DNA of 60,847 nucleotides from Promicromonospora soli (GTDB lineage: Bacteria; Actinomycetota; Actinomycetes; Actinomycetales; Cellulomonadaceae): the NCBI RefSeq assembly GCF_014653785.1, contig NZ_BNAS01000002.1, positions 347,926 through 408,772 on the forward strand, written 5' to 3'. The position numbers and the translations under genes are program-made. Every line of letters begins with the position of its first letter. Within the stretch, counting starts at the first letter, position 1. Positions 15,392 to 60,847 of this stretch are shown here, piece after piece. The notes under the pieces are model-generated. The model had not been told where the DNA came from and did not search any database. It saw only the letters and a program-made list of their open reading frames with translations.

Positions 15392-15506
15392 CGAAGTAGA
15401 ACCAGGGCGAAGTAGAACTGCAGCACACACGTGCTGTGTGTGCTGCAGTTCTATCTCGCTGTAGTTCTATCTCGATGCAGTTCTACTTCGCCCTGGTTCT
15501 ACTTCG
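15392..15506. repeat. 16-bp-phased inverted repeat array, copy A
   Basis: Six 11-bp units lie on an exact 16-bp grid within each arm. Forward CGAAGTAGAAC starts at 15392 and 15408. Reverse GTTCTATCTCG starts at 15448 and 15464, and reverse GTTCTACTTCG at 15480 and 15496. The centre is a hairpin, CTGCAGCACACAC paired with its complement around GTGCT (15418-15448). The outer 32 bp of each arm are perfect inverted copies, so inner and outer reverse units compete for the same left arm. The array begins 12 bases after the stop of the large nuclease gene and ends 28 bases before the start of the next same-strand gene. Confidence 0.93.
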
Positions 15507-15518
15507 GCGTGAGGGGGG

Positions 15519-18500
15519 TTACCCCACGAGCTTCCAGGGGCTGCGCTTACCTACGCCCGGGATCTGGAGGATCGTCGGGCGGGTCGCCTCGTAGATCGCA
15601 CCCTTGTAGGACACGGTGTCGCCCCACCAGTAGAGCTTCCACGGCTGCCACGCCGGAGCCTCCGGCTCCGCCGCCTCGACGGTCAGCGCCAGCCGGGCAG
15701 TGGTGCCCGACGGCGACGCCGTCACCAGGAGCTGGTACGCGCCCGGCGCCGTGCCGGCCGGGATGGTGACCGAGGACGACGTCGCGCCGTCGGCCACCGT
15801 GGCAGTGCCCAGCGAGACGCCCTCCGCGGCCTCGCCGCCGGACGGGACCAGGAACGTCTCCACGGCGGTGTTCTGCGGCGAGCCGAGCGAGGTCAGGTCC
15901 AGGCCCGACAGGCTCACATCGGTCGAGGCGCCCGCCTCGACCGTGCCCGGCAGGCTCGCGGCGACCGTGCGGGTGCGGGCGAAGCTCGGCGTGACCGGCG
16001 AGGACTCCTTCAGGTACGAGATCCACGCCTCGCGGTCCACCAGGCCCGAGTCGCGGCCGTTCGTGCCCTGAGTGAAGACCCGGAAGTTGTCACCACCCGA
16101 GATCAGGAACGAGAACGTCGCGACCCGGTACTCCGCGGCGGGGTCCACCGGCACACCGTTGATCGTGATCGACGAGACGTTGTCGCCAGGCGTCGCGTTC
16201 GGGTCGGCCGTGGACACCGTGTAGGACACGTTGTCCGACAGGCCCAGCGCCAGGTACGGGCGCGACGGACGGTTGCCGTTCGCATCCGTCTGCCACTGCT
16301 GCTCGAGCAGGGTGTCGAGCTGTGCGCCCGTGAGCGTGGTTGTCCACAGGTTGTTGACGAACGGCAGCACGGCGTTGGCCTCGGCGTAGGTGATCACACC
16401 GTCCTCGCCACCGGAAGCACCAGCAAAGTACAGCTCGTTGCGCAGGCCACCCGGGTTCACGACGCCGATGTCGGCGCCGCCCCGCTCCTCGGCGGCGAGC
16501 GAGTCACGCAGCGAGTTCGCCACGAGGTTGCCGAGCGCCGACTCCGACGCACGGTTGTCACGGTTGCCGCCGGTGTAGACGCCGTTCGTGTAGGTACCGC
16601 CCGAGAATGCGGTGGTGATGTCGGCGGTCACCTTGCCGATCGGCTCGGCGCCGATCTCCTGGGCCTCGGCCAGCGCGGCGTCCACGATCGTGTCCACCTC
16701 GGCGACCACCGGGTAAGTCGCGATCAGCTCGGCGGCCGGGGTGGCGGTACGTGCCACGTTCTCGACGGTGTAGTCGGTGACCTCGAAGGTCTCCGTGTCC
16801 ACCGTGAGGGAGACGTGGCCCAGGAACTCGCCGTAGTTGCCGGTCTGGATGATCGGACGGGTCTCCCCCTCCGCACCCGGGACCGGGGCGTCCCACGCGT
16901 ACTGCTTGTGGGTGTGACCAGTGAAGATGGCCTTGATCCGCGGGTCGGTGTCCTGCACCAGCGCGGCGAACGGACCGCCGGCGGCGATCTCCTCCTCCAG
17001 CGTGGCGCCGTCGGGCGTGCCCCCGCTGGCGCCGTCGTGCGCGAGCGCGACGACCAGGTCGGCCTCACCGTTCGCGGCGTCGCCGTCGAGCAGCTCGTCC
17101 GTGACCCGGTTCAGCGCCTCGACGGGGTCGCCGAACTCGAGGCCCTCGATGCCGGCCGGCGTGACCAGCGTGGGCGTCTCCTGCGTGACGACGCCGACGA
17201 AACCGACGTCGACCCCGTTGACCGGCACCACCTCGTACTCGGGCAGCGCGGGCTCGCCCGTGGCCGCGTCGTAGACGTTGGCACCCAGGTGGTCCCAGTC
17301 GGCGTTCTCCGTGACGCGGCCGGTGAGGTCCGCCATGCCCTGGTCGAACTCGTGGTTGCCGACCGCCGAGGTCTTCAGGCCCAGCGCGTTCAGCACGTCG
17401 AGGGTGGGCTGGTCCTGCTGCAGCGCGGACGCGAACAGCGAGGCGCCGATGTTGTCGCCCGCCGAGACGAACGCGGTGCCCTCGGGGTTCTGCGCCCGCA
17501 GCTGCTCGACGGTGCCCGCGAAGTTGACGGTGTTCCCGTCGATGCGGCCGTGGAAGTCGTTGATGGCCACGAGGTCCAGGTCGACGGAACCGGGGGTCGC
17601 GCCCGCGAGGTCCAGGCCGACCAGGACCGGGTCGTGGTCGGACGACCGGAACGGCGTCTCGTCGTAGAGGATCGACGCGTTGTAGTTGTACCGGCTGTAC
17701 TCGTTCGCCACCGGCTCGTACGCGTTGATGTTCCAGATGTCCGTGCCGGTCACGAGCCCAGCCGCCGCCGGGGAGGCCAGCACGTGGTCGAGCGAGCCGA
17801 CCATGCCGTCGAAGTTGTACGAGTACTCGCCGGTCGTGGGGCCGAGGTCGACGTAGCCGGCGTCGGTGAGGACCTTGATCGGGTCCTCTTGCTCGTAGGC
17901 ATTGAAGTCGCCCACCAGCAGGACCTTGTCGGTCTGGGCCACACTGGCCTGGGCCTCGGCGAAGGCCGCGAGAGCGGTCGCCTGCCGTGTGCGGGACTCG
18001 TTCGAGGCCCCCTGGCCGTCACCCTTGTCCGGGTCGCCGGGCCATGGGCCGGCCGAGCCCTTCGACTTGAAGTGGTTGGCGATCACCACGACGTCGTCGT
18101 CGGCGTCGGCGGTGCCGCCCGCGGGCTGGAAAGTCTGCGCCAGCGGCTGACGGGCATTCTGGAACGCCTCGTCACCGACCAGGATCGTCGACTCACCGAC
18201 CGGCTCCGCGGTGGCGGTCCGGTAGATGAAGGCGTTGCGGATGACGTCCTCGGCGTCGGGCACCTCGGCCGGGGAGGCCGCGTAGGCCCACGTGCCGGCA
18301 CCCTCCGCGGCGTTCAGCGCGTCCACCAGGTTGGCCAGGGCCTGGTCCCGTGGCCCGCCCAGCGCCGAGGTGTTCTCGATCTCGAGCAGTGCGACGACGT
18401 CCGCGCCGAGCGCGGAGATCGCCGCGACGATCTTGGCCTGCTGGCGCTGCAGGTCCTCCTCCTCGGCCGCGCCGCGAGCGTCGCAGCCGCCTGAGACGGT

Positions 18501-19541
18501 CACCGGGTCGCCCGCGCGGTCAGTGAAGTAGGTGCAGCCCGTGAGCTCGTCACCCGTGGTGCTGAAGTAGTTGAGCACGTTGAACGTCGCGACCTGCAGG
18601 TCGCCGCCGACGTCGGCGGGCGCGTCCTCGCGCGTGTTCTCGAACGTGGCCGGCTGGACCGTCGACGCGACGTCGGGCGTCAGCTGCTTCAGCGGCTGGA
18701 AGCCCCATGCGCCGAAGCGGTAGTCGAGGACCACCGGGGTGGTGAACGTGACCCCGGCGCCCACCCGCAGCGGTGCGCCGCCGGTCAGGTAGGGCAGCGG
18801 CTTCGACTTGTTCGCCGTCGAGTTGTAGTTCAGCGTCGACCCGTCGTCGAGCAGCACCGCGCGTGCGGCGTTGTCCGCGATCTGCGCGTCGTACTCCGCC
18901 GACAGCGGGCGGCCCACGGTCGTGGGCTGCACCAGCGGGCTGTCGCCCGCGGCCAGTCCGACCGTGCCGTAGTAGTTGGTGTCGTAGTTGTCCGTCACCG
19001 TGAACTCGCCCTGCGGCGCGAGGAGCATGCCCTCGAGCGCCTCGCGGCCGGCGGCGCCCGCAGGCCACGCCGTCGGCGTCGGCTGCACGGTGGCGGCCGT
19101 GTCGAGGACGGTCCAGCCGCCCGAAGCGGGCGTCAGCTCCGTCAGGCCGTTGTACTCGGACACGACGCCGGTGACCTCGACGTGGTCGCCGACGGCCACG
19201 CCGGCGGCCGCGGCCGTCGAGAAGACGAAGACTGCGTCCGACGCGCCGGGCGTGGCGTCGGTGTCGCCGCCCGTTCCGGCGGTCTGCAGATAGAAGCCGT
19301 TGAAACCGCCGGTCGGGTAGGCGGCGGTGACGACGCCCTGCGTGGTGACGGTGCTGCCCACCAGCGGGCTGGCGTCACCGGTGCCCTGGATGTCGGCGAT
19401 CGGCGTGACGTCCAGCGCCATTGCAGGCGCCATGCCGGCGAGTGTGGTCGGGACCGCGAGGGTCGCGGTCAGCGCTGCGGCGACGGCGGTGCGGGCCGTC
19501 CTCGCAGACAGTGGTGAGGATCGGAGCGTGCTGGGTGCCAC
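15519..19541 (-). CDS. Secreted ExeM/NucH-type nuclease fused to 5'-nucleotidase and CBM
   Basis: A multidomain secreted protein of about 1340 residues. In order: Sec signal (AVAAALTATLAVPTTLAGMAPAMA); an OB-like/LTD region; an endonuclease/exonuclease/phosphatase domain (VATFNVLNYF, LLEIENTS, VGDFNAYE, SSDHDPVLVGLDL); a metallophosphoesterase of 5'-nucleotidase type (AINDFHGRIDGN, GNHEFDQG, GHTHKQYAW); the 5'-nucleotidase C-terminal domain; and a final CBM5/12-like module (AWQPWKLYWWGDTVSYKG). It should degrade extracellular DNA to nucleosides and phosphate. GTG at 19541 is preferred because GAAGGAG lies correctly upstream; ATG at 19583 is the alternative. Confidence 0.9.
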   Translation of the reverse strand: MAPSTLRSSPLSARTARTAVAAALTATLAVPTTLAGMAPAMALDVTPIADIQGTGDASPLVGSTVTTQGVVTAAYPTGGFNGFYLQTAGTGGDTDATPGASDAVFVFSTAAAAGVAVGDHVEVTGVVSEYNGLTELTPASGGWTVLDTAATVQPTPTAWPAGAAGREALEGMLLAPQGEFTVTDNYDTNYYGTVGLAAGDSPLVQPTTVGRPLSAEYDAQIADNAARAVLLDDGSTLNYNSTANKSKPLPYLTGGAPLRVGAGVTFTTPVVLDYRFGAWGFQPLKQLTPDVASTVQPATFENTREDAPADVGGDLQVATFNVLNYFSTTGDELTGCTYFTDRAGDPVTVSGGCDARGAAEEEDLQRQQAKIVAAISALGADVVALLEIENTSALGGPRDQALANLVDALNAAEGAGTWAYAASPAEVPDAEDVIRNAFIYRTATAEPVGESTILVGDEAFQNARQPLAQTFQPAGGTADADDDVVVIANHFKSKGSAGPWPGDPDKGDGQGASNESRTRQATALAAFAEAQASVAQTDKVLLVGDFNAYEQEDPIKVLTDAGYVDLGPTTGEYSYNFDGMVGSLDHVLASPAAAGLVTGTDIWNINAYEPVANEYSRYNYNASILYDETPFRSSDHDPVLVGLDLAGATPGSVDLDLVAINDFHGRIDGNTVNFAGTVEQLRAQNPEGTAFVSAGDNIGASLFASALQQDQPTLDVLNALGLKTSAVGNHEFDQGMADLTGRVTENADWDHLGANVYDAATGEPALPEYEVVPVNGVDVGFVGVVTQETPTLVTPAGIEGLEFGDPVEALNRVTDELLDGDAANGEADLVVALAHDGASGGTPDGATLEEEIAAGGPFAALVQDTDPRIKAIFTGHTHKQYAWDAPVPGAEGETRPIIQTGNYGEFLGHVSLTVDTETFEVTDYTVENVARTATPAAELIATYPVVAEVDTIVDAALAEAQEIGAEPIGKVTADITTAFSGGTYTNGVYTGGNRDNRASESALGNLVANSLRDSLAAEERGGADIGVVNPGGLRNELYFAGASGGEDGVITYAEANAVLPFVNNLWTTTLTGAQLDTLLEQQWQTDANGNRPSRPYLALGLSDNVSYTVSTADPNATPGDNVSSITINGVPVDPAAEYRVATFSFLISGGDNFRVFTQGTNGRDSGLVDREAWISYLKESSPVTPSFARTRTVAASLPGTVEAGASTDVSLSGLDLTSLGSPQNTAVETFLVPSGGEAAEGVSLGTATVADGATSSSVTIPAGTAPGAYQLLVTASPSGTTARLALTVEAAEPEAPAWQPWKLYWWGDTVSYKGAIYEATRPTILQIPGVGKRSPWKLVG

Positions 19542-19769
19542 GCTGACTCCTTCTGCAGTTGAAGAGGGGGGTGCTCGGTTCATGCCACGAGCGCACCCAA
19601 CCAACCACGGCACGATGAATGCACGGTTACAAACGGGGACCAAGCGGAAAAACTCCGCGAGGTCCCCGAGTCAACGCACTGATCGTTGTGCTCGCCGCGG
19701 CTCGTCGAGGAGCGCGCGCGGCCGAGATTAGCGCGAGCCACCGACACGAGCCGCCAGACACGCTGGCCG

Positions 19770-20129: not shown

Positions 20130-20222
20130 TACCGCACCGCCAGGGAGTCGCCGAACCGCGTCCAGCCGGACCGCTCGAGGCTGGTGAAGTCGGTGGCGGC
20201 ACCGGGCACAGCGTTGGTCATG
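20130..20222 (-). CDS. Possible 30-residue leader or small ORF
   Basis: ATG at 20222 opens a 30-codon frame (MTNAVPGAATDFTSLERSGW...) that ends TAG, with the GTG of the SCP-like gene overlapping at TAGTG. It begins 24 bases after the ribonuclease stop. No strong ribosome binding site is seen. The exact overlap suggests it is translated and couples to the next gene, or that it is the displaced N-terminus of that protein. Weak evidence. Confidence 0.3.
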
Positions 20223-20246
20223 GCGTCAGTATCGCGGACCGCGGCG

Positions 20247-22361: not shown

Positions 22362-22409
22362 AACTGCGAAGATAAGCCGGTTTCGCGCTCCCCGCGCGGC
22401 GTCGCTGTG

Positions 22410-23372: not shown

Positions 23373-23414
23373 CCCCGGACCCTACCGGCAAACACCGGAG
23401 TAGAGCGCCTGCCC

Positions 23415-23458
23415 GGTCTCGACAGGCTCGACCACCGGTGGTCGAGCCTGTCGAGACC
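23415..23458. repeat. Perfect 44-bp palindrome
   Basis: Two 22-base arms abut without a spacer. The left arm begins GGTCTCGACAGGCTCGACC and the centre is CCACC-GGTGG. It lies just downstream of purL and upstream of the EEP gene. A half-copy occurs inside the tandem GNAT gene (51282-51300) and a degenerate half-copy upstream of the thiolase (34013-34033). It resembles dispersed palindromes I recall from high-GC Micrococcales genomes. Confidence 0.9.
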
Positions 23459-23478
23459 CGTGCGCTCGGGTCAGAGGG

Positions 23479-30552: not shown

Positions 30553-30858
30553 ATGACCCGTGTCATTGTCCTTGGATCGATAGTCGCAATAGGTGGCGGC
30601 GCGTTGCTCGGATTGACGCTCGCTTACCAGCACATACCGCTCACGGTGCTCGCCGTCCTCCTCGGACTGGCGGGCACTTTCGCTGTCATACGAACAACAC
30701 CCGAGCCGGCGCCCGTACTGCGGGATCCGGTCACTCTCGGCGGCCCGCTCGCGCGCCCCGCCGACAACGAGGACGAGGAGTCCGCAACCGAGCCCGTCCC
30801 GGCTCCGGTGCAACACTTCCCCGTCCCGGTCGTCGCCGCAGTACCCGACGCCGCGTGA
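30553..30858 (+). CDS. Small two-helix membrane protein
   Basis: A 101-residue protein starting MTRVIVLGSIVAIGGGALLG after GGGAGG. Two transmembrane helices occupy residues about 2-22 and 27-47. The remainder is an acidic, Pro/Val-rich tail (ADNEDEESATEPVPAPVQHF). The frame is open upstream, but the ribosome site fixes this start. It ends nine bases before repeat array B. Function unknown. Confidence 0.65.
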   Translation: MTRVIVLGSIVAIGGGALLGLTLAYQHIPLTVLAVLLGLAGTFAVIRTTPEPAPVLRDPVTLGGPLARPADNEDEESATEPVPAPVQHFPVPVVAAVPDAA

Positions 30859-30867
30859 CCGTCTCGC

Positions 30868-30964
30868 CGAGATAGAACCGTAGCGAGATAGAACTGCAGC
30901 GCGACGTCTCCCGGGATACGGGACGCGTCGCGCTGCAGTTCTATCTCGCTGCGGTTCTATCTCG
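30868..30964. repeat. 16-bp-phased inverted repeat array, copy B
   Basis: Four units lie on the same 16-bp grid. Forward CGAGATAGAAC starts at 30868 and 30884; reverse GTTCTATCTCG starts at 30938 and 30954. The centre is CTGCAGCGCGACG with its complement around a small inner stem. The two arms are nearly perfect inverted copies over about 42 bp, with one mismatch. Only the GAGATAG variant occurs here. The last unit contains the TAG stop codon (30957-30959) of the convergent acyl-CoA dehydrogenase; the other convergent gene stops nine bases before the first unit. Confidence 0.95.
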
Positions 30965-33074
30965 GCGTGCTGGCCTCCTGCTTGCGCAGCTCCTTCTCGC
31001 TGATCGGCGCCGTGCCGCTCGCGCGCAGCTCCCGGTAGTACGCGCGCGCCTCGTCCTGGCGCACCTTCTCCGAGCCGTTGGCGATCGGGGCGCGCAGGTG
31101 CTCCTGCGTGAAGCCCCAGGCGTCGATGACGTCGAGCACGTGCGGGCGGAGCTCCTTGAGCAGGCGGTCGATCGTCGACGTCACGGCCTTGGCACGCCCC
31201 GCCGAGAGGCGGCCGTTGGCCAGGTGCCAGTCGAGGTGGCGCTCGATGATGGTCAGTCCGTAGATGTCGCGGAGCAGGGTCAGCACCTTGCGGGTACCGG
31301 CGTCGGACACCTTGCCGATGGCCTTCGTGAAAGCGTCCCAGCGCACGAGCTCGGCCCATGCCTCCGCGGACGCGAGGAGGCGCACCTGGTGGTCGTCGAA
31401 GATCTCCTGCGCCCTGACCGAGTCGGCCTTGAGCGCGGGCCGCATGCCCATCGCGACCTCCGCGACCATGCCCTCGTAGCGGCCCGCGATCAGCGCCCGC
31501 TGCAGGTCGGCGTCCAGCAGGCGGTCCGCCGAGCGCGCGCCGCCGCCGTCGGCCATCGACTGGCCGAGCCTCTTCAGCGGGACCTTGTGCAGCAGCGCGT
31601 CCTTCGCCTGACCGGCCACGATGCCCGCCATACCGGCCGGGGACTTGGCCGCCCTCGCCATCTTCTTGCCGTAGTCGCCCACGAGGCGCTTGGCCGCGAG
31701 CTGCAGCAGCACGTGGTTGTCGCCCTCGAAGGTGGCGTAGATGTCGAGGTCCGCGCGCAGGCTGGTGAAGCGGTTCTCGGAGAGGAAGCCGGCGCCGCCG
31801 CAGGCCTCTCGGCACTCCTGCAGGGTGTCGAGCGAGTACCAGGTGGAGGTCGCCTTGAGCGCCGCCGCCGTCGTCTCGAGGTCCTCGCGCATCGCGGTGG
31901 TGTCCTCGCGGCCCGAGAACACCGCGTCGAACAGGTCGAGCAGCTCATCGTGCGCGAAATGCATCGCGTACGCCTCGGCGATGCGCGGGAAGAGGCGACG
32001 GCGGTGCGTCGCGTAGTCGAGCAGTGTCAGCTCGTCGGCACCGGCCGACGGCGAGAACTGGCGACGCTGGTCGGCGTACTTCGTGGCGATCGCGAGACCG
32101 AGCTTCGCCGCGGTGATCGCCGCGCCGTCGAGGGACACGCGGCCCTGCACCAGGGCGCCGAGCATCGTGAAGAAGCGGCGGCCGGGGCTGTCGATCGAGG
32201 AGGTGTAGGTGCCGTCCGCGGCCACCTGGCCGTAGCGGGCGAGCAGGTCCCGACGGGCCACGCGCACGTTCGTGAAGTGCAGCTTGCCGTTGTCGATGCC
32301 GTTGAGGCCGCCCTTCTGGTCGTCGTCCTCGCCACCGACGCCGGGCAGGAACTCCATGGTCTGCGGGTCGCGGATCGGCACGTAGAAGCAGTGCACACCG
32401 TGGTCGACGCCGTTCGTGATGAGCTGTGCGAACACGGTCGCCGCTACGCCGTGCGCGGCCGCGTTGCCGAGGTACTGCTTCCACGCGCCGCGGAACGGAG
32501 TGTTGAGCAGGAACTCCTCGGTCTCCGGGTCGTACGTCGCCGTGGTGCCGATGGAGGCGACGTCGGAGCCGTGACCCGTCTCGGTCATCGCGAAGGCGCC
32601 GGGGACCGACAGGTCCATCGCGCCGGGGAGCAGGCGGTCCTGCTGCTCTTCCGTGCCGAGGTGGAGGATCGCCGAGGCGAAGAGGCCCCACTGCACGCCG
32701 GACTTGATCTGCAGCGACGGGTCGGCGACGACGAGCTCCTCGAAGCCCACCAGGTTGGCACCCGCCTCGCCGCGGCCACCGAGGCGCTCCGGAAAGGCCC
32801 TCAGGACGTGGCCGTAGGGCACCATCTGCTTCATCTGGGCGAGGGTGATCTCCCGGTGCTCCTCCTTGGTGATCCCCTCCTTCTTCCAGAGCTCGGGGTG
32901 CTCGGCCACCATGCGACGGGCCTCGGAACGCGCCTCGGGCCAGCGGCCGAGCAGCATCTGCCGCAGGGCGGGCACGTCCACCCGGGTGCCCGACGCCGGA
33001 CTGGTCGCCTCGGGCGTGGGTGCTACGGCCTCGGGCGCGATGCCGGTGGTCACGGGCTCGGAGGTGGTCGTCAT
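30957..33074 (-). CDS. Acyl-CoA dehydrogenase, FadE5-like
   Basis: A 705-residue flavoprotein of the long acyl-CoA dehydrogenase/oxidase type. Conserved segments include AMTETGHGSDVASIGTTATY near residue 180, PGRRFFTMLGALVQGRVSL near 300 and ECREACGGAGFLSENRF near 430. It oxidises acyl-CoA thioesters with FAD. Its neighbours match the mycobacterial fadE5-fadA2-fabG4-htdX locus, although here it lies opposite the other three genes. It ends ...STPR followed by TAG, a stop supplied by repeat array B. A TetR gene lies directly upstream on the same strand. Confidence 0.9.
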   Translation of the reverse strand: MTTTSEPVTTGIAPEAVAPTPEATSPASGTRVDVPALRQMLLGRWPEARSEARRMVAEHPELWKKEGITKEEHREITLAQMKQMVPYGHVLRAFPERLGGRGEAGANLVGFEELVVADPSLQIKSGVQWGLFASAILHLGTEEQQDRLLPGAMDLSVPGAFAMTETGHGSDVASIGTTATYDPETEEFLLNTPFRGAWKQYLGNAAAHGVAATVFAQLITNGVDHGVHCFYVPIRDPQTMEFLPGVGGEDDDQKGGLNGIDNGKLHFTNVRVARRDLLARYGQVAADGTYTSSIDSPGRRFFTMLGALVQGRVSLDGAAITAAKLGLAIATKYADQRRQFSPSAGADELTLLDYATHRRRLFPRIAEAYAMHFAHDELLDLFDAVFSGREDTTAMREDLETTAAALKATSTWYSLDTLQECREACGGAGFLSENRFTSLRADLDIYATFEGDNHVLLQLAAKRLVGDYGKKMARAAKSPAGMAGIVAGQAKDALLHKVPLKRLGQSMADGGGARSADRLLDADLQRALIAGRYEGMVAEVAMGMRPALKADSVRAQEIFDDHQVRLLASAEAWAELVRWDAFTKAIGKVSDAGTRKVLTLLRDIYGLTIIERHLDWHLANGRLSAGRAKAVTSTIDRLLKELRPHVLDVIDAWGFTQEHLRAPIANGSEKVRQDEARAYYRELRASGTAPISEKELRKQEASTPR

Positions 33075-37839: not shown

Positions 37840-37845
37840 CGGGAT

Positions 37846-37920
37846 GCGCGTGGTTGTGGGCGCGATCGTTGCGACTACACGTCCGCTTTAGGCGCAACGA
37901 TCGCGCCCACAACCAAGCGC
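37846..37920. repeat. Long inverted repeat with 28-bp arms
   Basis: Arms 37846-37873 and 37893-37920 are inverted copies with one mismatch (core TGGTTGTGGGCGCGATCG). The 19-base loop is ACTACACGTCCGCTTTAGG. It fills the gap between convergent genes and could terminate both. It has no similarity to the 16-bp-phased arrays. Size and symmetry also fit a miniature mobile palindrome. Confidence 0.88.
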
Positions 37921-37928
37921 GTCGGGGG

Positions 37929-42793: not shown

Positions 42794-42858
42794 GGCGTCC
42801 TCCAGCAAAGTCCTGGGGGAGGTTCCCCCGCGCTTGCCGCGCGCGGGCTGCGCGCGGC

Positions 42859-42941
42859 CAGGTCGTCACCCGGGGCACCCCACCGCGGAGGGAGGGTTGC
42901 CGGCCAGCGAGCCGGGGCTTGGCGCTGGCGCTCATGACCTG
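42859..42941 (-). promoter_or_regulatory. SAM-IV riboswitch aptamer
   Basis: Read on the minus strand from 42941, P1 pairs CAGGTC with GACCTG. Between them are the conserved blocks GGTCATGAGCGCCAGC, AAGCCCCGGCTCGCTGG, CCGGCAACCCTCC and CGCGGTGGGGTGCCCCGGG, followed by GTGACGACC. This matches the actinobacterial SAM-IV class. Downstream, GCCGCGCGC pairs with GCGCGCGGC (expression platform), and GGGGG/CCCCC sits near the ribosome site of the class V aminotransferase gene. Confidence 0.92.
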
Positions 42942-43772: not shown

Positions 43773-43847
43773 ACCGGGACCCTAACGTGCCCGGCCTGCG
43801 AGACAGCATCCCACCCACCGGACGGGGTGTCGTACGATCGCAAACGA

Positions 43848-43950
43848 CCATCCCGAGCGGCCGAGTGACGTGGCACGACGACGCCGCAGCAACCCAGCGT
43901 TCCCACCTTACGGTGAGAACGGACGAGGGTGCTACCGCCACGACCGATGG
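43848..43950 (+). promoter_or_regulatory. SAM-I (S-box) riboswitch
   Basis: P1 pairs CCATC (43848-43852) with GATGG (43946-43950). Between them are S-box blocks: GAGCGGCCGAGTGAC, GTGGCACGACGACGCC, GCAGCAACCC, a P3/P4 region with CCCACCTTACGGTGAGAA, and GGGTGCTACCGCC. The 3' strand of P1 runs directly into the ribosome binding site (GATGGAGG) of the rhodanese gene. SAM binding should therefore close P1 and hide the site, giving translational repression of rhodanese-metZ. Confidence 0.9.
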
Positions 43951-43958
43951 AGGAACAC

Positions 43959-53787: not shown

Positions 53788-53922
53788 CGCTACTCCCCTG
53801 TCGACAGGCGGCGATATTAGCGCCACGCGAGTTTCCCGGGGATGAACCCGACGCGCAGCGAGACGGACCGCGCGCGGACCGCCGCCGGCGGGGCCCCGGC
53901 GACGGCACGCGAGCCGAGGGTC

Positions 53923-55212
53923 CTACGAGACGGCGACCTCGCCGCGCTCCGCCTTCAGCGCGATGTCCGTGCGGTGGTGCGAGCCCTTGAGGTCGATCTT
54001 CGCGACGCCCTCGTAGGCCCGACGCCGGGCGTCCGCCAGGTCGCGGCCCAGCGCCACAACCGACAGCACGCGGCCGCCCGCGCTGACCAGCTCGCCAGTC
54101 TCGGAGAGGCCGGTGCCGGCGTGCAGCACGTGCACGCCGGCGAGCGACTCCGCATCCTCGATGCCGGTGATCGGGTCGCCCGACCGTGCCGACGCCGGGT
54201 AGCCCTCGGACGCGACGACCACCGTCACCGACGCCTCCGGGCGCCAGCGCAGCGGCTCCAGCTCGGCGAGCGTGCCGCGGGCCGCCGCGAGCATGACCTC
54301 GGACAGCGGCGTCGCGAGCCGGGCCAGCACGGACTGGGTCTCCGGGTCGCCGAAGCGCGCGTTGAACTCCACCACGCGGGTGCCACGGGAGGTGAGCGCG
54401 AGGCCGACGTACAGGACCCCGGAGAACGGCGTGCCGCGGCGGGCCATCTCGTCGACGGTCGGCTGGGCGATGCGGGCCACCACCTCGTCCACCAGGCCCG
54501 ACGGCGCCCAGTCCAGCGGGGTGTAGGCGCCCATGCCGCCCGTGTTCGGCCCCTCGTCGTCATTTCCCACGCGCTTGAAGTCCTGGGCGGGGACCAGGGG
54601 GACCACCGTCGCGCCGTCGCACACGCAGAACAGGGAGACCTCGGGGCCGTCAAGGTACTCCTCGACCACCACCCGGCCGTTCTCGTTGGCCAGGCACGCC
54701 TCGCCGTGAGCGAGCGCCGCCTCGCGGTCGTCCGTGACGACGACGCCCTTGCCGGCCGCGAGGCCGTCGTCCTTGACCACGTACGGCGCGCCGAACGCGT
54801 CGAGCGCTGCCGCCACCTCGGTGGCGTCGGTGCACACGTGCGCCATCGCGGTCGGCACGCCCGCGGCGGCCATGACCTCCTTGGCGAACGACTTGGAGCC
54901 CTCGAGCCGGGCGGCCTCGCCGGACGGGCCGAACACCGGGATGCCCGCCGCCCGGACGGAGTCCGCGACACCCGCCACCAGCGGCGCCTCCGGGCCGACG
55001 ACGACGAGCTCGGCGCCCAGCCGCTCGGCGAGGGCCGCCACGGCCGCTCCGTCGAGGGGGTCGACCTCGTGCAGCGTTGCGGCCGCGGCGATACCCGGGT
55101 TGCCGGGTGCGGCGTGCAGCTCATGGACGGCGACGCCGGTCACGTTCTCCCGGTCCAGGGAGTGGACTATGGCGTGCTCGCGGGCACCGGTCCCGATGGC
55201 GAGGATCTTCAC
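53923..55212 (-). CDS. purD: Phosphoribosylamine-glycine ligase
   Basis: A 429-residue ATP-grasp enzyme that joins phosphoribosylamine to glycine. Visible landmarks are ILAIGTGAREHAIVHSL at the start, VVGPEAPLVAGVADSV near residue 73, VVKDDGLAAGKGVVV near 142 and FNARFGDPETQ near 293. GTG at 55212 follows purA by 17 bases, so purA-purD are an operon. The longer frame that extends through purA is an artefact. Confidence 0.97.
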   Translation of the reverse strand: MKILAIGTGAREHAIVHSLDRENVTGVAVHELHAAPGNPGIAAAATLHEVDPLDGAAVAALAERLGAELVVVGPEAPLVAGVADSVRAAGIPVFGPSGEAARLEGSKSFAKEVMAAAGVPTAMAHVCTDATEVAAALDAFGAPYVVKDDGLAAGKGVVVTDDREAALAHGEACLANENGRVVVEEYLDGPEVSLFCVCDGATVVPLVPAQDFKRVGNDDEGPNTGGMGAYTPLDWAPSGLVDEVVARIAQPTVDEMARRGTPFSGVLYVGLALTSRGTRVVEFNARFGDPETQSVLARLATPLSEVMLAAARGTLAELEPLRWRPEASVTVVVASEGYPASARSGDPITGIEDAESLAGVHVLHAGTGLSETGELVSAGGRVLSVVALGRDLADARRRAYEGVAKIDLKGSHHRTDIALKAERGEVAVS

Positions 55213-55229
55213 TGTGGTGGAGGTCTTTC

Positions 55230-56522
55230 TCAGCGCGCGTGGATGAGGTCGTGAATGGGAATGATCTCGTCGCGCTTCGGCCCCACGCCGATCGCGGAGA
55301 TCCGGGTGCCCGACATCTCCTCGAGCGCCCGCACGTACGCCTGTGCCTTCGGCGGCAGGTCCTCGAAGGCGCGGGCCTTGGAGATGTCCTCCCACCAGCC
55401 GTCGAGCTCCTCGTAGATCGGCTTCGCGTGGTGGAACGCCGTCTGGTCGGTGGGCATCTCGTCGTAGCGGACGCCGTCGACGTCGTACGCCACGCAGACC
55501 GGGACCTTCTCCATGCCGGTGAGGATGTCGAGCTTGGTGAGCACGATGTCGGTGAGCCCGTTGATGCGGGTCGCGTAGCGCGCGATCACCGCGTCGTACC
55601 AGCCGGTGCGGCGCGCGCGGCCCGTCGTGACGCCGTACTCGCCGCCGGTCTTGCGGAGGAACTCGCCCTTGTCGTCGAACAGCTCCGTGGGGAAGGGACC
55701 CTCGCCCACACGCGTCGTGTAGGCCTTGATGACGCCGATCACGGAGTCGATCCGGGTGGGGCCGACGCCGGACCCGGTCACCGCGCCGCCCGCCGTCGCG
55801 CTGGAGGACGTCACGAACGGGTAGGTGCCGTGATCGATGTCGAGCATCGTCGCCTGGCCGGCCTCGAACAGCACGTTCTTGCCGGTGTCGAGCGCCTTGT
55901 TCAGCTCGACGGCGGTGTCCGTGACCATGGGCCGCAGCCGGTCGGCGTACTGGAGCAGCTCGTCGAGCGTCTCGTCCACCGTGATGGCGCGCCGGTTGTA
56001 GACCTTCACGAGCAGGTGGTTCTTCTGGTCGAGCGAGCCCTCGATCTTGGCGCGCAGGATCTTCTCGTCGAACAGGTCCCACATGCGGATGCCGACGCGG
56101 TTGATCTTGTCGGCGTACGCCGGGCCGATGCCCCGGCCCGTGGTGCCGATGCGGCGCTTGCCGAGGAAGCGCTCGGTCACCTTGTCGATGGTGCGGTGGT
56201 ACGGGGCGATGATGTGCGCGCTGCCCGAGACGAGCAGGCGGGACACGTCGACGCCGCGCGCGATCAGCGCGTCGAGCTCCTCGAACAGGACCTCGATGTC
56301 GACCACCACGCCGTTGGCGATGACCGGCACCACGCCGGGCGACAGGATTCCCGACGGCAGCAGGTGCAGGGCGTACTTCTCGTCGTCGATGACGACCGTG
56401 TGCCCCGCGTTGTTCCCACCGTTGAACTTCACCACGTAATCGACGCGGGAGCCCAGGAGGTCCGTCGCCTTTCCCTTGCCCTCATCGCCCCACTGGGCCC
56501 CGACGAGCACGACGCCTGGCAT
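55230..56522 (-). CDS. purA: Adenylosuccinate synthetase
   Basis: A 430-residue GTP-dependent enzyme of the AMP branch. The P-loop-like signature [15 protein letters not shown] (residues about 9-23) and NNAGHTV near 38 are intact, as are [14 protein letters not shown] near 130 and TTTRRTGW-like [15 protein letters not shown]. Length is standard. It heads purA-purD, transcribed leftward. Confidence 0.98.
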
Positions 56523-56596
56523 GGATCTCCACCTTCTCGGATTGCTTGACTGCTCCGCCGAGTGCGCTCGAGAGCGCCCGCGGGCCGCGCCCGAGT

Positions 56597-57040
56597 CTAC
56601 TTCGTGGTGGGCACCAAGGCGCCAACCTCGTCCACAGACGCGCCCGAGTCCATGAGGAACTTCGCACAGCGCTCGGCCTCGTCCTCCTCGCCGATGAGGT
56701 CCGCTGCCCGGGAGAGCGCGAGCAGCGCCCGGAGAAAGCCCTGGTTCGGCACGTGGCTCGCCGGGATCGGCCCCTGCCCGCGCCAGCCGGCCCGGCGCAG
56801 CGCGTCCAGCCCGCGGTGGTAGCCCGTGCGCGCATAGGCGTAGGCCTCGACGTTCCCCGCAGCGCTACCCGCGTCGAGCGCGCCCTCCGCGAGGACCGCC
56901 CACACGAGGGACGACGCCGGCGCCGACGCCGCGACCTCGACCGGGTCGTCGCCGCTGGTCAGGCGCTCACGAGCCGCCGGGTAGTCGTCGGGCAGCAGCG
57001 TCGGGGCAGGTCCCTGCAGCAGGTTCTCGTGGGTGCTCAT
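56597..57040 (-). CDS. DUF3151 family protein
   Basis: A 147-residue protein matching actinobacterial DUF3151: [42 protein letters not shown] and GWRGQGPIP. All-helical, cytoplasmic, function unknown; commonly placed upstream of purA. Its stop codon context ACGAAGTAGAC resembles one unit of the 16-bp-phased element, but a single degenerate unit proves nothing. Confidence 0.93.
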
Positions 57041-57171
57041 GCTCGAATTCTGACACTACCGGGACAGCGCGTGACAAAGGGGATCGCACAGGTTTGCCCA
57101 TTTGGCCAGCCCGGACGGTGAATTTTGCCTTTCATCCGGTGCGATCGGGCAACAGTCGTTACGCTCGACAC

Positions 57172-57576
57172 ATGATCGAGATCGCGACGTCTCCCACGAC
57201 GACGACGCTCGTGATCGCCGGCGACCTCGACCTCGCCGAACGAGACCAGTTCCCGGAGATCGCAGCGCGCGTCGTCGGCCTGCGCCGGCAGCTGCTCGTC
57301 ATCGACATGTGCCGGGTCACGTTCATGGACTCCACCGGGGCCGCGTTCCTCATCTCGCTGGCCGACGCCGGCCGCAAGCGCGGCGGTGCGACCGTCATCC
57401 GCGGGGCGGACGAGCGCGACCTCTTCGTGCTCGAGGTCTGCGGCGCCATGGAGCTTTTCCGCGTGGACGACGAGCACTCGTGCGAACCCGCCGCGCCCGA
57501 CTCCGGTTTCGCGGTGATGACCCCGCGGGACGAAGACGTATCGCCGTTGTCCCGCCGTGACGCGTCCACTGCGTAG
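57172..57576 (+). CDS. STAS-domain anti-sigma-factor antagonist (first copy)
   Basis: A 134-residue STAS protein. The phosphorylatable Ser54 is in FMDSTGAAFLISL, the RsbV/SpoIIAA signature. The ~35-residue C-terminal tail is disordered. It would bind a kinase/anti-sigma factor when unphosphorylated and be reactivated by a PP2C phosphatase. The convergent neighbour is such a phosphatase with a HATPase domain, so the genes probably form one switch. Divergent from DUF3151. Array C begins 21 bases after its stop. Confidence 0.9.
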   Translation: MIEIATSPTTTTLVIAGDLDLAERDQFPEIAARVVGLRRQLLVIDMCRVTFMDSTGAAFLISLADAGRKRGGATVIRGADERDLFVLEVCGAMELFRVDDEHSCEPAAPDSGFAVMTPRDEDVSPLSRRDASTA

Positions 57577-57597
57577 AGCGTTATCAGCTCCCGGTGG

Positions 57598-57722
57598 CGA
57601 GTAGAACTCTGGCGAAGTAGAACCTCAGCGAAGTAGAACCGCAACCGCCGCATGGCGCGCTGCGTTCTATCTCGCCAGAGTTTTATCTCGCCAGAGTTCT
57701 ACTTCGCCACGGTTCTACTTCG
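57598..57722. repeat. 16-bp-phased inverted repeat array, copy C
   Basis: Seven units. Forward units start at 57598 (a 10-base variant CGAGTAGAAC), 57613 and 57629. Reverse units start at 57664, 57680, 57696 and 57712, an exact 16-bp period. The unit at 57680 reads GTTTTATCTCG, which turns the TAG of that unit into TAA. The central loop (57640-57663) is only weakly palindromic. The outermost reverse unit contains the TAG stop codon (57715-57717) of the phosphatase gene. The array fills the gap between convergent STAS and phosphatase genes. Confidence 0.95.
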
Positions 57723-60183
57723 GCGGGGTCGGCTGGCGGCGCAGCTTCGCCCAGACCAGCTTCCCGGAGCCGGACGGACGCCAGCCCCACTCGGCCAGCC
57801 GGTCCACGATCTGCATGCCGAACCCGCCCAGGCGGTTGGGGTGCCCGTCGGTCGCGACCGGCGGCGCCGGGTTGTTGTCCTCGACCTCGATGCGCAGGCC
57901 GTCGCCCGTGTCGTACAGGCGCAGCGCGATGTGCCCCCAGCCGTGCAGCACGCCGTTCGCCACCAGCTCCGACACCACGAGCTCGGCCTGCGCCGACTCC
58001 TCGATGCCCCACGCCTGGCAGGTGCGCAGCACGGCGTGCCGGGCCCGGCCGATCGACGACGGCTCGCTCGGCAGCATCCAGCGCCGCCAGCGAGGCGACA
58101 GGGCGGTCTCCCCGGCGTCACCGGTCGGGTCGGGGATCCGCACCACGACGATCGCTACATCGTCCTCGGGCGCGTCGGCCAGGCGGGAGAGCAGCTCCTC
58201 GCCGACGCCGGCGGCGTCGCGCGCCGTGATGGCCGACGCGGTCTCCTGCAGGGCCTCCAGGCCCAGCCGCAGGGACCGGTCGCGCCGCTCGATGAGACCG
58301 TCCGTGTAGAAGAGCAGCGTGTCGCCGGGCTGGAGCCGGGCCTCGCCCGTGGTCCGGTCCCGCGACCCGAAGCCGACGAGCGCGCCCCCGCCCTCGTCCA
58401 GCTTGATCACCTCGCCACCGCGCAGCAGGAGCGGCGGCAGGTGGCCGGCGCGTGAGTAGCCGATGGTCCAGACGTCCGGCTCCTCCTCGCGCTTCAGGGA
58501 GGCGTACACCATGCTTGCCGAGCGCGGGATGCCCATGCCCGCCACGAGCTGGTCCACGCGTTCGAGCACGCGGCTCGGCGTCGACAGCTCGAACGCGTAC
58601 GAGCGCACCACCGAGCGCAGCTGGCCCATGGTGGCGGCCGCCTCCACGTCGTGGCCGACGACGTCGCCGATCACCAGGCCCACGAGCTCCGGCGAGATCT
58701 GCAGCACGTCGTACCAGTCGCCGCCCACCTGGGCGTGCTCCGCGTTCGGGGCGTAGTAGGTCCACACGTCGAGGCCCGCGACGTCGGCCTGTTCGGGGAG
58801 CATGGCGCGCTGCAGGGTCTCGGCGAGGCGGTGCTCCCGCGCGTACATGCGCGCGTTGTCGATGGCGCTGCCCGCCCGGCGGGCCACCACCTCGACCACG
58901 GTGCGCAGCGTGTCGGGCTCGTCCGCCTCGACGTAGTCGCCCGACTCGTCCTCGTCCGGCACGATCACGACCAGGCCGAGCACGTCCCGCCGTCCGGCAA
59001 CGGGGTGCACCACCACCGAGTCCGGCGCCTTGCCGAGCTCGTCCGCGAGGCGCAGCGTGAGGTCGCGCTGCAGCCAGCCCGAAGCCGAGTGCGGCGCGTG
59101 CGGGATGTCGAGGTGCAGCGTGACAGGACCGTCGAGCACGCCGTCGAGCACGTCCTGCACCGAGTCCACGACCTCGAGGATGGGCATGGGTCCGGTGGTC
59201 ACGGAGTCGCCGAGGGCATCGGTCTGCGGACGGCGCCGCAGGGACTTGTCCGCGATGTTGTCGCCCTCGATGTAGCGCGCGTGCCGCCGGCCGCGGCCGC
59301 TCGGCGGTGCCGCGACGTCGATGCCGGCGGCGTGCTTGAGGCCGTCGTCGTTCACGTAGAAGCCCGCCCAGCGCACCATCGACTGCAGCAGCTCCGCGAT
59401 GTCGCGCAGGGCGTACGGGTACTCGAGGTCCGTCAGGATCTCGGTGGTCTGCGCGATGAGGTCGAGGTCCTCGCGCTGCTGCCGCTCGACCTCCAGGCTC
59501 GCGAGCTGGGCGGCGTGCCGCTCCATGTGGTCGGAGACGTCCACGCTGAACCCGACCCAGTGGGTGATGCGGTCGCCCAGGCCGGCGCGGGCCGGCGTGA
59601 GCGTGAGCTGGGCCCAGCCGTGCGTCCCGCCGCGCAGGTGGGACCGCACCGTCGCGTGCACCTCCTGGCCGGCGTTCACCAGGTCGGTCATGCGCTGCAG
59701 GTCCTGCGGCTCCACGAGCATCTCGCCGAGCCGGCGCACCGTGTACCCCGCGAAGTCGCTGAACCGCACGCCCGCGTAGTGCTCGAACGCCGCGTTGGCC
59801 CACAGCATGGGCATGCCGTCCTCGGTGGGTCCGGTCAGGAACACGGGGAGACCCACCGTCACGGCGGCACGCAGCACGACGTCGCCGACCGACGGCGGCA
59901 GGGTGCGCGGGATGCCCGTCCCCGACACGTACGGCCGCGGCTCGGTACCCGGCACGCGGTACGTGCCACCCGGGGGCGTGGTCGGCGTGATGCTCGGCGG
60001 GACGCTCGCAGTGTGCTGGGCCGGCCGGCCTGTGCCGAAGCTGTTCCCGTTCGACGGTCCGCCGCGTGCTCCGTTCATCGTCCCGTTCGGCATTCCGTCC
60101 TTGTTCGGACCGAGGCCGAAATTGGAGAGGCCGGGGTGCCGCGGCGGCGGAGAGGACGGAGTCAGACCGGATGAATCGGTCAA
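57715..60183 (-). CDS. PAS-GAF-SpoIIE phosphatase-HATPase regulator
   Basis: A protein of about 822 residues. A disordered Gly/Asn/Pro-rich N-terminus (about 1-75) precedes a PAS domain (about 95-205, MLWANAAFEHYAGVRFSDFA), a GAF-like region (about 240-430), and a PP2C/SpoIIE phosphatase (about 450-670, VGGDWYDVL, LVIGDVVGHDVEAAATM, LLFYTDGLIERRD). A C-terminal RsbW-like HATPase follows (about 690-815, VVSELVANGVLHGWG and NRLGGFGMQIVDRLAEWG). TTG at 60183 is preferred, with GGGAGGG just upstream. It would sense a signal and reset STAS antagonists. It ends ...TPPK then the repeat-supplied TAG. Confidence 0.92.
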   Translation of the reverse strand: MTDSSGLTPSSPPPRHPGLSNFGLGPNKDGMPNGTMNGARGGPSNGNSFGTGRPAQHTASVPPSITPTTPPGGTYRVPGTEPRPYVSGTGIPRTLPPSVGDVVLRAAVTVGLPVFLTGPTEDGMPMLWANAAFEHYAGVRFSDFAGYTVRRLGEMLVEPQDLQRMTDLVNAGQEVHATVRSHLRGGTHGWAQLTLTPARAGLGDRITHWVGFSVDVSDHMERHAAQLASLEVERQQREDLDLIAQTTEILTDLEYPYALRDIAELLQSMVRWAGFYVNDDGLKHAAGIDVAAPPSGRGRRHARYIEGDNIADKSLRRRPQTDALGDSVTTGPMPILEVVDSVQDVLDGVLDGPVTLHLDIPHAPHSASGWLQRDLTLRLADELGKAPDSVVVHPVAGRRDVLGLVVIVPDEDESGDYVEADEPDTLRTVVEVVARRAGSAIDNARMYAREHRLAETLQRAMLPEQADVAGLDVWTYYAPNAEHAQVGGDWYDVLQISPELVGLVIGDVVGHDVEAAATMGQLRSVVRSYAFELSTPSRVLERVDQLVAGMGIPRSASMVYASLKREEEPDVWTIGYSRAGHLPPLLLRGGEVIKLDEGGGALVGFGSRDRTTGEARLQPGDTLLFYTDGLIERRDRSLRLGLEALQETASAITARDAAGVGEELLSRLADAPEDDVAIVVVRIPDPTGDAGETALSPRWRRWMLPSEPSSIGRARHAVLRTCQAWGIEESAQAELVVSELVANGVLHGWGHIALRLYDTGDGLRIEVEDNNPAPPVATDGHPNRLGGFGMQIVDRLAEWGWRPSGSGKLVWAKLRRQPTPPK

Positions 60184-60251
60184 AATGCCCTCCCTACGGT
60201 ATCTATTGCTCGAGGTGCTGTTCCAGCAGGACATTCAACCGTAGATTGGAA

Positions 60252-60290
60252 CGGTCCGAGATCTGAACCTCAACCTCTATCATCGGACCG
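60252..60290. promoter_or_regulatory. Inverted repeat in the phosphatase / STAS divergent promoter region
   Basis: CGGTCCGA (60252-60259) and TCGGACCG (60283-60290) form an 8-bp inverted repeat 23 bases apart between two divergent genes. A shared operator or overlapping sigma-factor sites are possible. Confidence 0.4.
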
Positions 60291-60327
60291 ATACAAAGCA
60301 ACGACCACTGCTCCCGGAAGGAGAACC

Positions 60328-60807
60328 GTGCAGGACGGAACTTACGACCCCCCGCGCGGTCCGCAGGGCGGGAGCCCCCAGGACCCCGGCCATCAGAACC
60401 CTGAGATCGGCGATCCTGCGAGCATCCACGTCATCGTGGGCCGCTCCCGTGCCCGGATCGTGCTCTCCGGCGAGATCGACGCCGACATCGGCGGTGACCT
60501 GCACGAGGCCACTGCCGCAGCCGAGGAGTCCCGTCTCCCGGTCGAGATCGATGCGCACCACGTGACCTTCATGGACTCGTCCGGCGTGGCGTTCCTCGCG
60601 CGCCTCGCGAGCCGCAGCCCGCACCGCGTGCGCGTCCTGCGCGCGCCGCCGACGGTGCGCTTCCTGCTCGAGGTGACGCGGATCGGCGACCTCCTCGACA
60701 TCGTCGACGAGGACCCCGGCTTCGAGCTGGACGACGACGGCCCGTCCGGCCCGCCGTCGGGCGGTGCGGCGGCCCCCGCTGGTGTGGGCGGCCCTCCGGC
60801 CTCGTGA
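60328..60807 (+). CDS. STAS-domain anti-sigma-factor antagonist (second copy)
   Basis: A 159-residue STAS protein, GTG start after GGAAGGAG. A ~30-residue disordered Gly/Pro N-terminus precedes the domain. The phospho-site is FMDSSGVAFLARLA (Ser84/Ser85). A Gly/Pro/Ala tail follows. It is divergent from the phosphatase gene, which therefore lies between two STAS genes. Copy D of the repeat starts three bases after its stop. Confidence 0.9.
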   Translation: MQDGTYDPPRGPQGGSPQDPGHQNPEIGDPASIHVIVGRSRARIVLSGEIDADIGGDLHEATAAAEESRLPVEIDAHHVTFMDSSGVAFLARLASRSPHRVRVLRAPPTVRFLLEVTRIGDLLDIVDEDPGFELDDDGPSGPPSGGAAAPAGVGGPPAS

Positions 60808-60810
60808 TGC

Positions 60811-60847
60811 CGAAGTAGAACTGTGGCGAGATAGAACTGGGGCTGAG
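60811..60847. repeat. 16-bp-phased repeat array, copy D (cut by the window edge)
   Basis: Forward units CGAAGTAGAAC at 60811 and CGAGATAGAAC at 60827 are again 16 bases apart, mixing both variants in one arm. They begin three bases after the STAS stop. The reverse arm must lie beyond the window. Confidence 0.85.

What the first reader, a model, noticed from the sequence alone, without database searches (positions are those of the whole stretch)
15392..60847. A dispersed element made of 11-bp units on an exact 16-bp grid, in inverted arrays at gene ends
Seen directly: nineteen copies of CGAAGTAGAAC, CGAGATAGAAC or a near variant at four loci. Within each arm the start-to-start distance is 16 bp, except one 15-bp step next to a shortened unit. 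The three complete loci are forward arm, palindrome or loop, reverse arm (2+4, 2+2 and 3+4 units). The units are AT-rich in a very GC-rich genome, so the pattern is maintained. The five-base spacers vary between loci but match between arms of one locus, which means each arm was copied or is co-evolving with its partner. I recognise no named family. Possible roles: bidirectional transcription ends, RNase III substrates, mobile REP-like elements, or protein-binding arrays.
Basis: seen in the sequence. Interest (0 to 1): 0.92.

Follow-up and report, generated by a model that had tools for sequence, protein, structure and literature searches.

The report
Gene-end hairpins built from 16-bp modules
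Soil bacteria of the genus Promicromonospora can carry dozens to hundreds of long hairpins built from a repeated 16-base module right where genes end, probably to stop or protect RNA from both directions, and the module's spelling differs between species like a dialect.

Summary
The window (Promicromonospora) holds 4 of at least 44 arrays; among the first 100 exact 11-mers listed, 47 of 49 close same-strand steps are 16 bp. Each array is an inverted pair of tandem CGARRTAGAAC-YNNRG arms, a long hairpin on either strand. Of 125 arrays from six genomes, 86 lie between convergent genes, 37 between tandem genes, none divergent, 2 unclassified; 195 of 211 gene 3' ends facing an array have their stop within -12..+25 nt of its edge, and in 45 the stop is the outermost unit's own TAG. 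In two relatives without intact arrays, 19 of 20 tested slots hold other hairpins. Core spelling (AAC or TCA type) differs by genome and is switched at six shared slots between sister species. No Y1/RAYT gene in 13 genomes; no Rfam match at the arrays. Best reading: a REP-like, RAYT-less family of two-way transcript-end hairpins with a stem of sequence-specific 16-bp modules; termination or 3'-end protection is inferred, not shown. New variant of a known kind; the dialect switch hints at an unknown reader or homogenising process.

The parts
15390..15508 (.). Array 1: + units 15392, 15408; palindromic centre 15419-15447; - units 15448, 15464, 15480, 15496; closed by GC...GC. Between a nuclease/5'-nucleotidase gene (-, stop at 15519) and a short unnamed ORF (-)
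   Evidence: orthologous slot compared in 13 genomes
30866..30966 (.). Array 2: + units 30868, 30884; centre 30895-30937; - units 30938, 30954. Between a + ORF ending at 30858 (no Pfam match; its end is conserved in relatives) and an acyl-CoA dehydrogenase/oxidase gene (-) whose TAG stop (30957-30959) lies inside the outermost unit
   Evidence: empty slot (stops 9-10 nt apart) in G001, G005, G011, G012 and a half-unit remnant in G008
57598..57724 (.). Array 3: short unit 57598-57607, + units 57613, 57629; centre; - units 57664, 57680, 57696, 57712. Between a STAS-domain gene (+, ends 57576) and a PAS/SpoIIE-phosphatase gene (-) whose TAG stop (57715-57717) lies inside the outermost unit
60809..60847 (.). 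Array 4 (cut by the window end): + units 60811, 60827; the rest (centre partly N in the assembly, and the mirror arm) lies beyond the window in L132
15519..19421 (-). Gene ending at array 1: endonuclease/exonuclease/phosphatase, metallophosphatase and 5'-nucleotidase C-terminal domains
30957..33074 (-). Gene ending inside array 2: acyl-CoA dehydrogenase/oxidase domains
57715..60093 (-). Gene ending inside array 3: PAS, SpoIIE-type phosphatase and HATPase domains

Best explanation
The arrays are DNA-encoded gene-end hairpins, a RAYT-less REP-like family of Promicromonospora. Transcribed from either side, the two inverted arms fold into one long stem-loop that starts at, or a few bases after, the stop codon. 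I think it ends or trims the transcripts of both flanking genes and shields their 3' ends (the U-less, 'I-shaped' type of GC-rich bacteria). The stem is made of 16-bp modules (CGARRTAG + dialect triplet + YNNRG) that are gained and lost over evolution, tend to be kept complementary between arms, and are homogenised in sequence across the genome. Shown: geometry, location, arm co-variation, turnover of hairpin type at fixed slots, dialects. Inferred: transcription of the arrays, termination or 3'-end protection, and a sequence-specific reader or copying process behind the core conservation.
For: 125 arrays: 86 convergent, 37 tandem, 0 divergent, 2 unclassified; array-free gene pairs 75/391/140; P(0 divergent of 123) about 9e-15. 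Stops at -12..+25 nt on 195 of 211 sides; 45 at exactly -8 (the unit's own TAG), 3 at -24, 0 at -40. Arms co-vary: 190 both-side-changed cells against a shuffle mean of 98.9, maximum 126; 93.7% of cells paired against a shuffled maximum of 91.2% and 34-44% when slid (107 arrays). Mean MFE -72.8 kcal/mol over the 42 of 44 G000 arrays without N. The same slots in genomes without intact arrays hold other hairpins: stem score at least 15 in 19 of 20 G008/G012 slots, coding control maximum 11 over 60 segments of 300 nt; four window slots in 13 genomes: 44 of 52 score 12 or more, in stretches of 351-751 nt, longer than the control. U-less hairpin ends and bidirectional ends are reported in Streptomyces clavuligerus (PMC8269248, passages).
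Against: No transcript data. No U-tract: A is about 12% at the eight flank positions that would be read as U, and the terminator scan finds nothing at array 3 or the visible half of array 4 (its loop limit of 8 nt may miss them). The core is nearly invariant (at least 97% in 16 of 18 fixed core columns), more than pairing alone needs, although my detection rule (exact seed, neighbours with at most 2 mismatches) inflates this. Slot 2 is empty in 4 of 13 genomes and a remnant in a fifth, so the hairpin is dispensable there; slot 3 scores below 12 in 3 of 13. The three variable spacer positions differ between arms in 32-39% of arrays. Arm lengths are only weakly correlated (rho 0.29; equal in 44 of 118, shuffle mean 33.6, maximum 51). 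The slots were chosen because they hold arrays in G000 or G011, so the frequency of hairpins at other gene ends is not measured.
Confidence: 0.68

Rival explanations
1. Purely selfish mobile repeats (MITE/REP-like): they insert widely and survive only at gene ends because insertions elsewhere harm the cell; the hairpin serves their own copying.
For: Copy number is very uneven within one genus (0 in G008 to 462 pairs in G005 in the loose search); empty slots in some species where others have an array; near-identical TGATCA-centred copies at several G000 loci, with 89-98% identity over 45-62 bp to copies in G011; GTAG-REPs show the same placement and TAG donation (PMC3733652, section 15).
Against: No Y1 transposase in 13 of 13 genomes, though other transposase families were not tested; no autonomous copy seen in the loci read; genomes without intact arrays hold other hairpins in the same slots; slots are shared between species with changed unit numbers, so part of the pattern is old and retained.
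Confidence: 0.3
2. Double-stranded DNA binding arrays: a protein binds the 11-bp core every 16 bp (about 1.5 DNA turns), for example a nucleoid, topology or roadblock factor; the hairpin is incidental.
For: Core nearly invariant while spacers vary; 16-bp step in 47 of 49 close steps; core dialects per genome, as expected if a binding protein changes specificity.
Against: Inverted arms with co-varying spacers; replacement by unrelated hairpins at the same slots; both arms present in 118 of 125.
Confidence: 0.25
3. RNase III-type processing or mRNA-stabilising stems rather than terminators: transcripts read through and are cut or trimmed back to the hairpin.
For: Long near-perfect stems, no U-tract, placement right after stop codons.
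Against: Cannot be separated from termination by sequence; the strong preference for convergent pairs fits termination on both strands as well.
Confidence: 0.3
4. Uptake-sequence system like Neisseria DUS: an 11-mer tag for DNA uptake that in inverted pairs also forms terminators.
For: Dialects per genome and inverted pairs at gene ends resemble DUS (PMC3630211, passages).
Against: 218 exact 11-mers in the genome; of the first 100 listed only 6 stand alone (flags 7, the last because the list stops inside an array), whereas DUS number thousands and are common within genes.
Confidence: 0.04

Closest known systems
GTAG- and CGTC-tagged REPs / BIMEs (Di Nocera 2013, PMC3733652: abstract and other passages, and section 15 in full)
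   Same: High-copy extragenic palindromes, mostly between convergent and tandem genes, most convergent ones under 20 bp from both 3' ends in the species shown there; GTAG-REP ends often supply the TAG stop codon; [quoted passage not shown]
   Different: No unpaired tag; TAG lies inside the stem; the stem is a tandem array of 16-bp modules with conserved core; no Y1/RAYT gene found in the genus; core dialects per genome
Neisseriaceae DNA uptake sequences and their inverted pairs (PMC3630211: passages seen)
   Same: Short core, species dialects, inverted pairs tied to terminators
   Different: Here single copies are rare and arrays the rule; no uptake role known or tested
U-less ('I-shaped') and bidirectional 3'-end hairpins of GC-rich bacteria (S. 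clavuligerus, PMC8269248: passages seen)
   Same: Stable stem-loops without U-tract at transcript ends, some ends bidirectional
   Different: Not described as a repeat family with a fixed module in the passages I saw
MITEs and IS-end repeats (recalled, no call)
   Same: Dispersed inverted repeats, uneven copy number
   Different: No parent transposase found, no target duplication established, modular 16-bp grid

Membership tests
RAYT-associated REP (GTAG type) | 20-40 nt palindrome with an unpaired GTAG tag at one end | tested here: not met
   TAG sits inside the paired stem (mostly GCCGARRTAG...CTAYYTCGGC) and the stem is a tandem array
RAYT-associated REP (GTAG type) | Y1/HUH transposase (RAYT) in the genome or clade | tested here: not met
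   PF01797: 0 of 13 genus genomes (one only 83% complete); control positive in 5 of 14 named genomes including E. coli
RAYT-associated REP (GTAG type) | Extragenic, convergent/tandem, close to ORF 3' ends; end may supply TAG stop | tested here: met
   86 convergent, 37 tandem, 0 divergent, 2 unclassified; 195 of 211 sides within -12..+25 nt; 45 sides use the unit's TAG
REP in the broad sense (high-copy extragenic palindrome) | Many dispersed palindromic copies per genome | tested here: met
   At least 44 loci in G000; up to 462 unit pairs in G005
Canonical intrinsic terminator | Stem-loop followed by U-tract | tested here: not met
   Flank composition of the 44 G000 arrays and scan of 55000-60847
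U-less (I-shaped) transcript-end hairpin | Stable stem without U-tract at mapped RNA 3' ends | not testable with these tools
   Structure fits; no RNA data
DNA uptake sequence | Hundreds to thousands of single copies, many within genes | tested here: not met
   218 exact 11-mers; 94 of the first 100 listed belong to an array or close pair (see rival)
MITE | Target-site duplication and a parent transposon | tested here: inconclusive
Any Rfam family | Covariance-model match at gathering score | tested here: not met
   Window only: five matches, none at the four arrays

The most novel reading that the evidence does not exclude
Each array-bearing Promicromonospora genome has a trans-acting reader (a protein or RNA-processing/termination factor) that recognises the 16-bp module in the stem, as DNA or as double-stranded RNA. 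When its specificity shifts, the whole set of gene-end arrays is rewritten in place from one core dialect to another (AAC to TCA type or back), while the slots stay where they are: a sequence-specific, genome-wide transcript-end code.
Probability: 0.3. Interest if true: 0.88.

Novelty: new variant of a known kind. Interest (0 to 1): 0.62.

Why it matters
It shows that gene-end hairpins can be treated as fixed slots whose contents turn over: arrays, other repeat hairpins, or sometimes nothing. It offers a natural experiment (13 genomes, two core dialects, relatives without intact arrays) on how transcript ends evolve in a GC-rich actinobacterium; in S. clavuligerus, for comparison, hairpin ends with a U-tract were 182 of 1,427 mapped ends (PMC8269248, passages). 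If a module-specific factor exists, it would be a new kind of sequence-specific termination or RNA-end system. The elements might also serve as compact two-way insulators in actinobacterial engineering (speculation).

Tried and rejected
RAYT/Y1 partner: none in 13 genomes. Rfam: nothing at the four window arrays. Papers: the 11-mer gave 20 papers that look unrelated by title and abstract start; the rival hairpin GGTCGAGC gave none; Promicromonospora plus repeat terms gave one, on carotenoid regulation; one five-term search gave none; four broader searches gave 14, 18, 45 and 17 papers, of which I looked into three (PMC3733652, PMC8269248, PMC3630211) and saw only the listing for others. Viral contigs: one contig (L183) with CGAAGTAGAAC at 16 and 21 bp, by eye a different repeat, taken as coincidence; none for the TCA core. 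DUS-like single tags rejected. Of seven apparently one-armed arrays, five show a decayed second arm by eye, two (L097, L134) do not. Coordinated growth of both arms is only weakly supported. An 'all-frame stop' role (16 is not a multiple of 3) was considered: the -8/-24/-40 counts 45/3/0 show the second and third TAG are hardly used, so I do not claim it.
Full report
OBSERVATION. The 11-mer CGARRTAGAAC stands at the four loci described, 19 units in all. The pair pattern with N5 between units matches 93 times in the genome and 0 times when reversed; an inverted-pair pattern adds loci. I parsed 44 distinct loci with 219 units, 130 of 132 steps exactly 16 bp and 2 of 15 bp; the 130 spacers follow YNNRG: first base T or C in 127, fourth A or G in 130, fifth G in 127. 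That step count is partly circular, since most loci were found with a 16-bp pattern and imperfect units were admitted only at 15, 16, 17 or 32 bp. The unbiased figure comes from the exact 11-mers (218, reversed control 3): among the first 100 listed, 47 of 49 same-strand steps under 30 bp are 16 and 2 are 15; 6 units are isolated, and one further pair at 15 bp (C1:602899/602914) is not among my 44.

ANATOMY. Arms are inverted and enclose a variable, usually palindromic centre; outer ends are mostly GCCGARRTAG...CTAYYTCGGC. RNA folding of the 42 N-free arrays gives a mean of -72.8 kcal/mol. In G000, outermost spacers agree between arms in 22 of 38 (shuffle mean 5.7, maximum 15) and the variable RR pair in 56 of 76 (shuffle mean 29.7, maximum 43). 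Over 107 arrays from G000, P. panici, P. thailandica, P. sukumoe and strain AC04 (18 of 125 set aside: too short, other step, or not closed by both arms), 93.7% of cells pair, with 190 both-side changes against at most 126 in 500 shuffles. Caveats: core columns are nearly invariant (at least 97% in 16 of 18 fixed core columns), so they pair regardless, and the detection rule inflates that invariance; the three variable spacer positions agree in 73, 65 and 70 of 107. The core thus seems conserved beyond what pairing needs.

LOCATION. With my own codon-usage gene caller, 125 arrays (44 from G000, 81 from named loci of five other genomes) fall as 86 convergent, 37 tandem, 0 divergent, 2 unclassified, against 75/391/140 for array-free gene pairs of the same stretches. 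Of 211 sides that face a gene's 3' end, 195 have the stop at -12..+25 nt. At 45 sides the stop is the TAG of the outermost unit (distance -8), at 3 that of the second unit, at none that of the third. Two arrays have no called stop within 30 nt. One (L089) follows a tRNA-Arg gene by 24 nt, so the elements may also follow RNA genes. The other (L039) has a TGA 13 nt upstream (by eye, frame not tested) that the caller may have missed. The caller also skipped an ORF ending at 30858, at array 2, whose end is conserved in relatives. Genes ending at the window arrays carry nuclease/5'-nucleotidase, acyl-CoA dehydrogenase/oxidase, SpoIIE-phosphatase and STAS domains; I see no common function.

DISTRIBUTION. 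Strict AAC-type pairs in 13 genus genomes: G000 93, G001 0, G002 7, G003 1, G004 1, G005 238, G006 10, G007 0, G008 0, G009 72, G010 39, G011 191, G012 0. TC-type pairs: G000 2, G001 246, G002 61, G003 9, G005 3, G006 1, others 0. The loose search finds more in some (G005 462, G001 284, G002 94, G003 25, G006 26; G004 and G012 not drawn), that is, further variants such as CGAGGTAGGAC in G005. Outside the genus, 0 of 110 genomes of the family match the strict pattern; the loose pattern gives 26 matches in 22 of the 110, against 10 in the reversed control.

DIALECTS. Counting exact pairs of the two types, array-rich genomes are nearly pure: G000 93:2, G001 0:246, G005 238:3, G009 72:0, G010 39:0, G011 191:0; G002 is 7:61. 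In a tree from conserved flank columns of the four window slots (1,516 columns, midpoint root), G001 (TCA) and G011 (AAC) are sisters with support 1.000, and G002/G003 (TCA) form another clade, so the type changed at least twice or was once mixed. Of the 14 slots compared, six carry arrays in both G001 and G011, all TCA units in the one and all AAC in the other (slots 3 and 4; L106, L061, L056, L045). At slot 4 the two even share the TGATCA centre, so there the units seem rewritten around a retained centre. Against this, at slot 1 both carry short TCA-like hairpins, perhaps relics; at the other seven slots G001 has no array.

TURNOVER AT FIXED SLOTS. Slot 2 (array 2) is empty in G001, G005, G011 and G012, with the convergent stops 9-10 nt apart; G008 keeps a half unit whose TAG is the stop; others carry diverged arrays or unrelated hairpins. 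Slot 4 holds arrays in G000, G001, G005 and G011 and a wholly different hairpin in the other nine. Over four slots and 13 genomes (G000 included), 44 of 52 have a stem score of 12 or more, the misses being five at slot 2 and three at slot 3; the coding control had mean 8.3 and maximum 11 over 60 segments of 300 nt, shorter than the 351-751 nt stretches. For ten further slots chosen from P. thailandica arrays (query, fetched), G008 and G012, which have no exact pairs, score at least 15 in 19 of 20; at 12 or more stand 10 of 10 in G002 and 7 of 10 in G001. Some keep the centre of the G000 array with decayed or few units (L061 and L032 slots), so the units look like a stem extension on a persisting hairpin. 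Slots are shared among G000, P. panici, P. thailandica and P. sukumoe with different unit numbers (that output was cut, and its loci were fetched because they hold arrays, so the rate of sharing is not measured).

MECHANISM. Gene-end placement, no divergent case, co-varying arms and replacement by unrelated hairpins argue that the hairpin itself is what is kept at most slots. The scarcity of stops at the second or third TAG (3 and 0 against 45) fits a stem that ribosomes should not enter. Two-way transcript ending or 3'-end protection is the simplest role; U-less hairpin ends and bidirectional ends are known in S. clavuligerus (PMC8269248, passages). This step is inferred: there is no RNA evidence here, no U-tract, and slot 2 can be empty. 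What plain hairpins do not explain is the conserved core, the 16-bp step and the dialects. Either a sequence-specific reader or a homogenising copying process is needed; I cannot tell which. That 16 bp is about 1.5 helical turns, and about the reach of a double-stranded-RNA-binding domain, is recalled, not tested.

COMPARISON. GTAG-REPs share placement (most convergent ones under 20 bp from both 3' ends in the species shown) and even donate TAG stops (PMC3733652, section 15), so those two features are not new. The missing Y1/RAYT gene, missing unpaired tag, 16-bp modular stem and dialects set this family apart. CGTC-REPs also apparently lack a dedicated transposase (abstract). DUS dialects (PMC3630211, passages) are a parallel for genome-wide concerted spelling, not a family membership. 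I found no description of this repeat in the searches.

VERDICT. Real, found only in Promicromonospora so far, abundant in some species, at gene ends, hairpin-forming; most likely a REP-like, RAYT-less family of two-way transcript-end elements. New variant of a known kind, with an open and testable question about what reads or homogenises the module.

Noticed in passing
window 23395-23473; G000 genome-wide: Another palindromic repeat, GGTCGAGCNTGTCGAGACC: 97 exact matches in G000, and matches in only 3 of the 58 other genomes drawn from the order; no paper in the library holds the strings searched.
   Followed up: partly
window 37840-37928; L124:871-949, L129:1859-1929, L150:3956-4037; also slot 3 of G006, G008, G012: A third repeated gene-end hairpin, GTTGTGGGCGCGATCGTTGCG and variants, between convergent genes.
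   Followed up: partly
L197-L199, L201-L205, L207 (slot 4 in nine genomes): Conserved hairpin of the type GATCGGTAAAAGGTCAGGTGRTCGGYAG occupying the slot that holds an array in G000.
   Followed up: no
L132:3321-3471 and L157:11056-11206: Runs of N lie in the centre of two G000 arrays, so the assembly probably failed at the hairpin; their centres are uncertain.
   Followed up: no
L089:958-1188: An array in P. panici starts 24 nt after a tRNA-Arg gene, so the elements may also end RNA genes.
   Followed up: partly
window 42825-42939 (-) and 43845-43953 (+): Two SAM riboswitches about 0.9 kb apart on opposite strands: SAM-IV (100.6 bits) and SAM/S-box (45.9 bits, just over its gathering score of 44.4).
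   Followed up: no
L183 (IMG/VR contig), 506-564, 1782-1808, 6349-6401: An unrelated-looking contig of the viral collection has tandem CCGAAGTAGAACTT repeats at 16 and 21 bp; likely a different repeat.
   Followed up: partly
G000 convergent gene pairs without array (23 pairs): Gaps between convergent stops are either under 20 nt or overlapping, or 37-92 nt and mostly with a strong hairpin, as if hairpins were inserted into near-empty junctions.
   Followed up: partly
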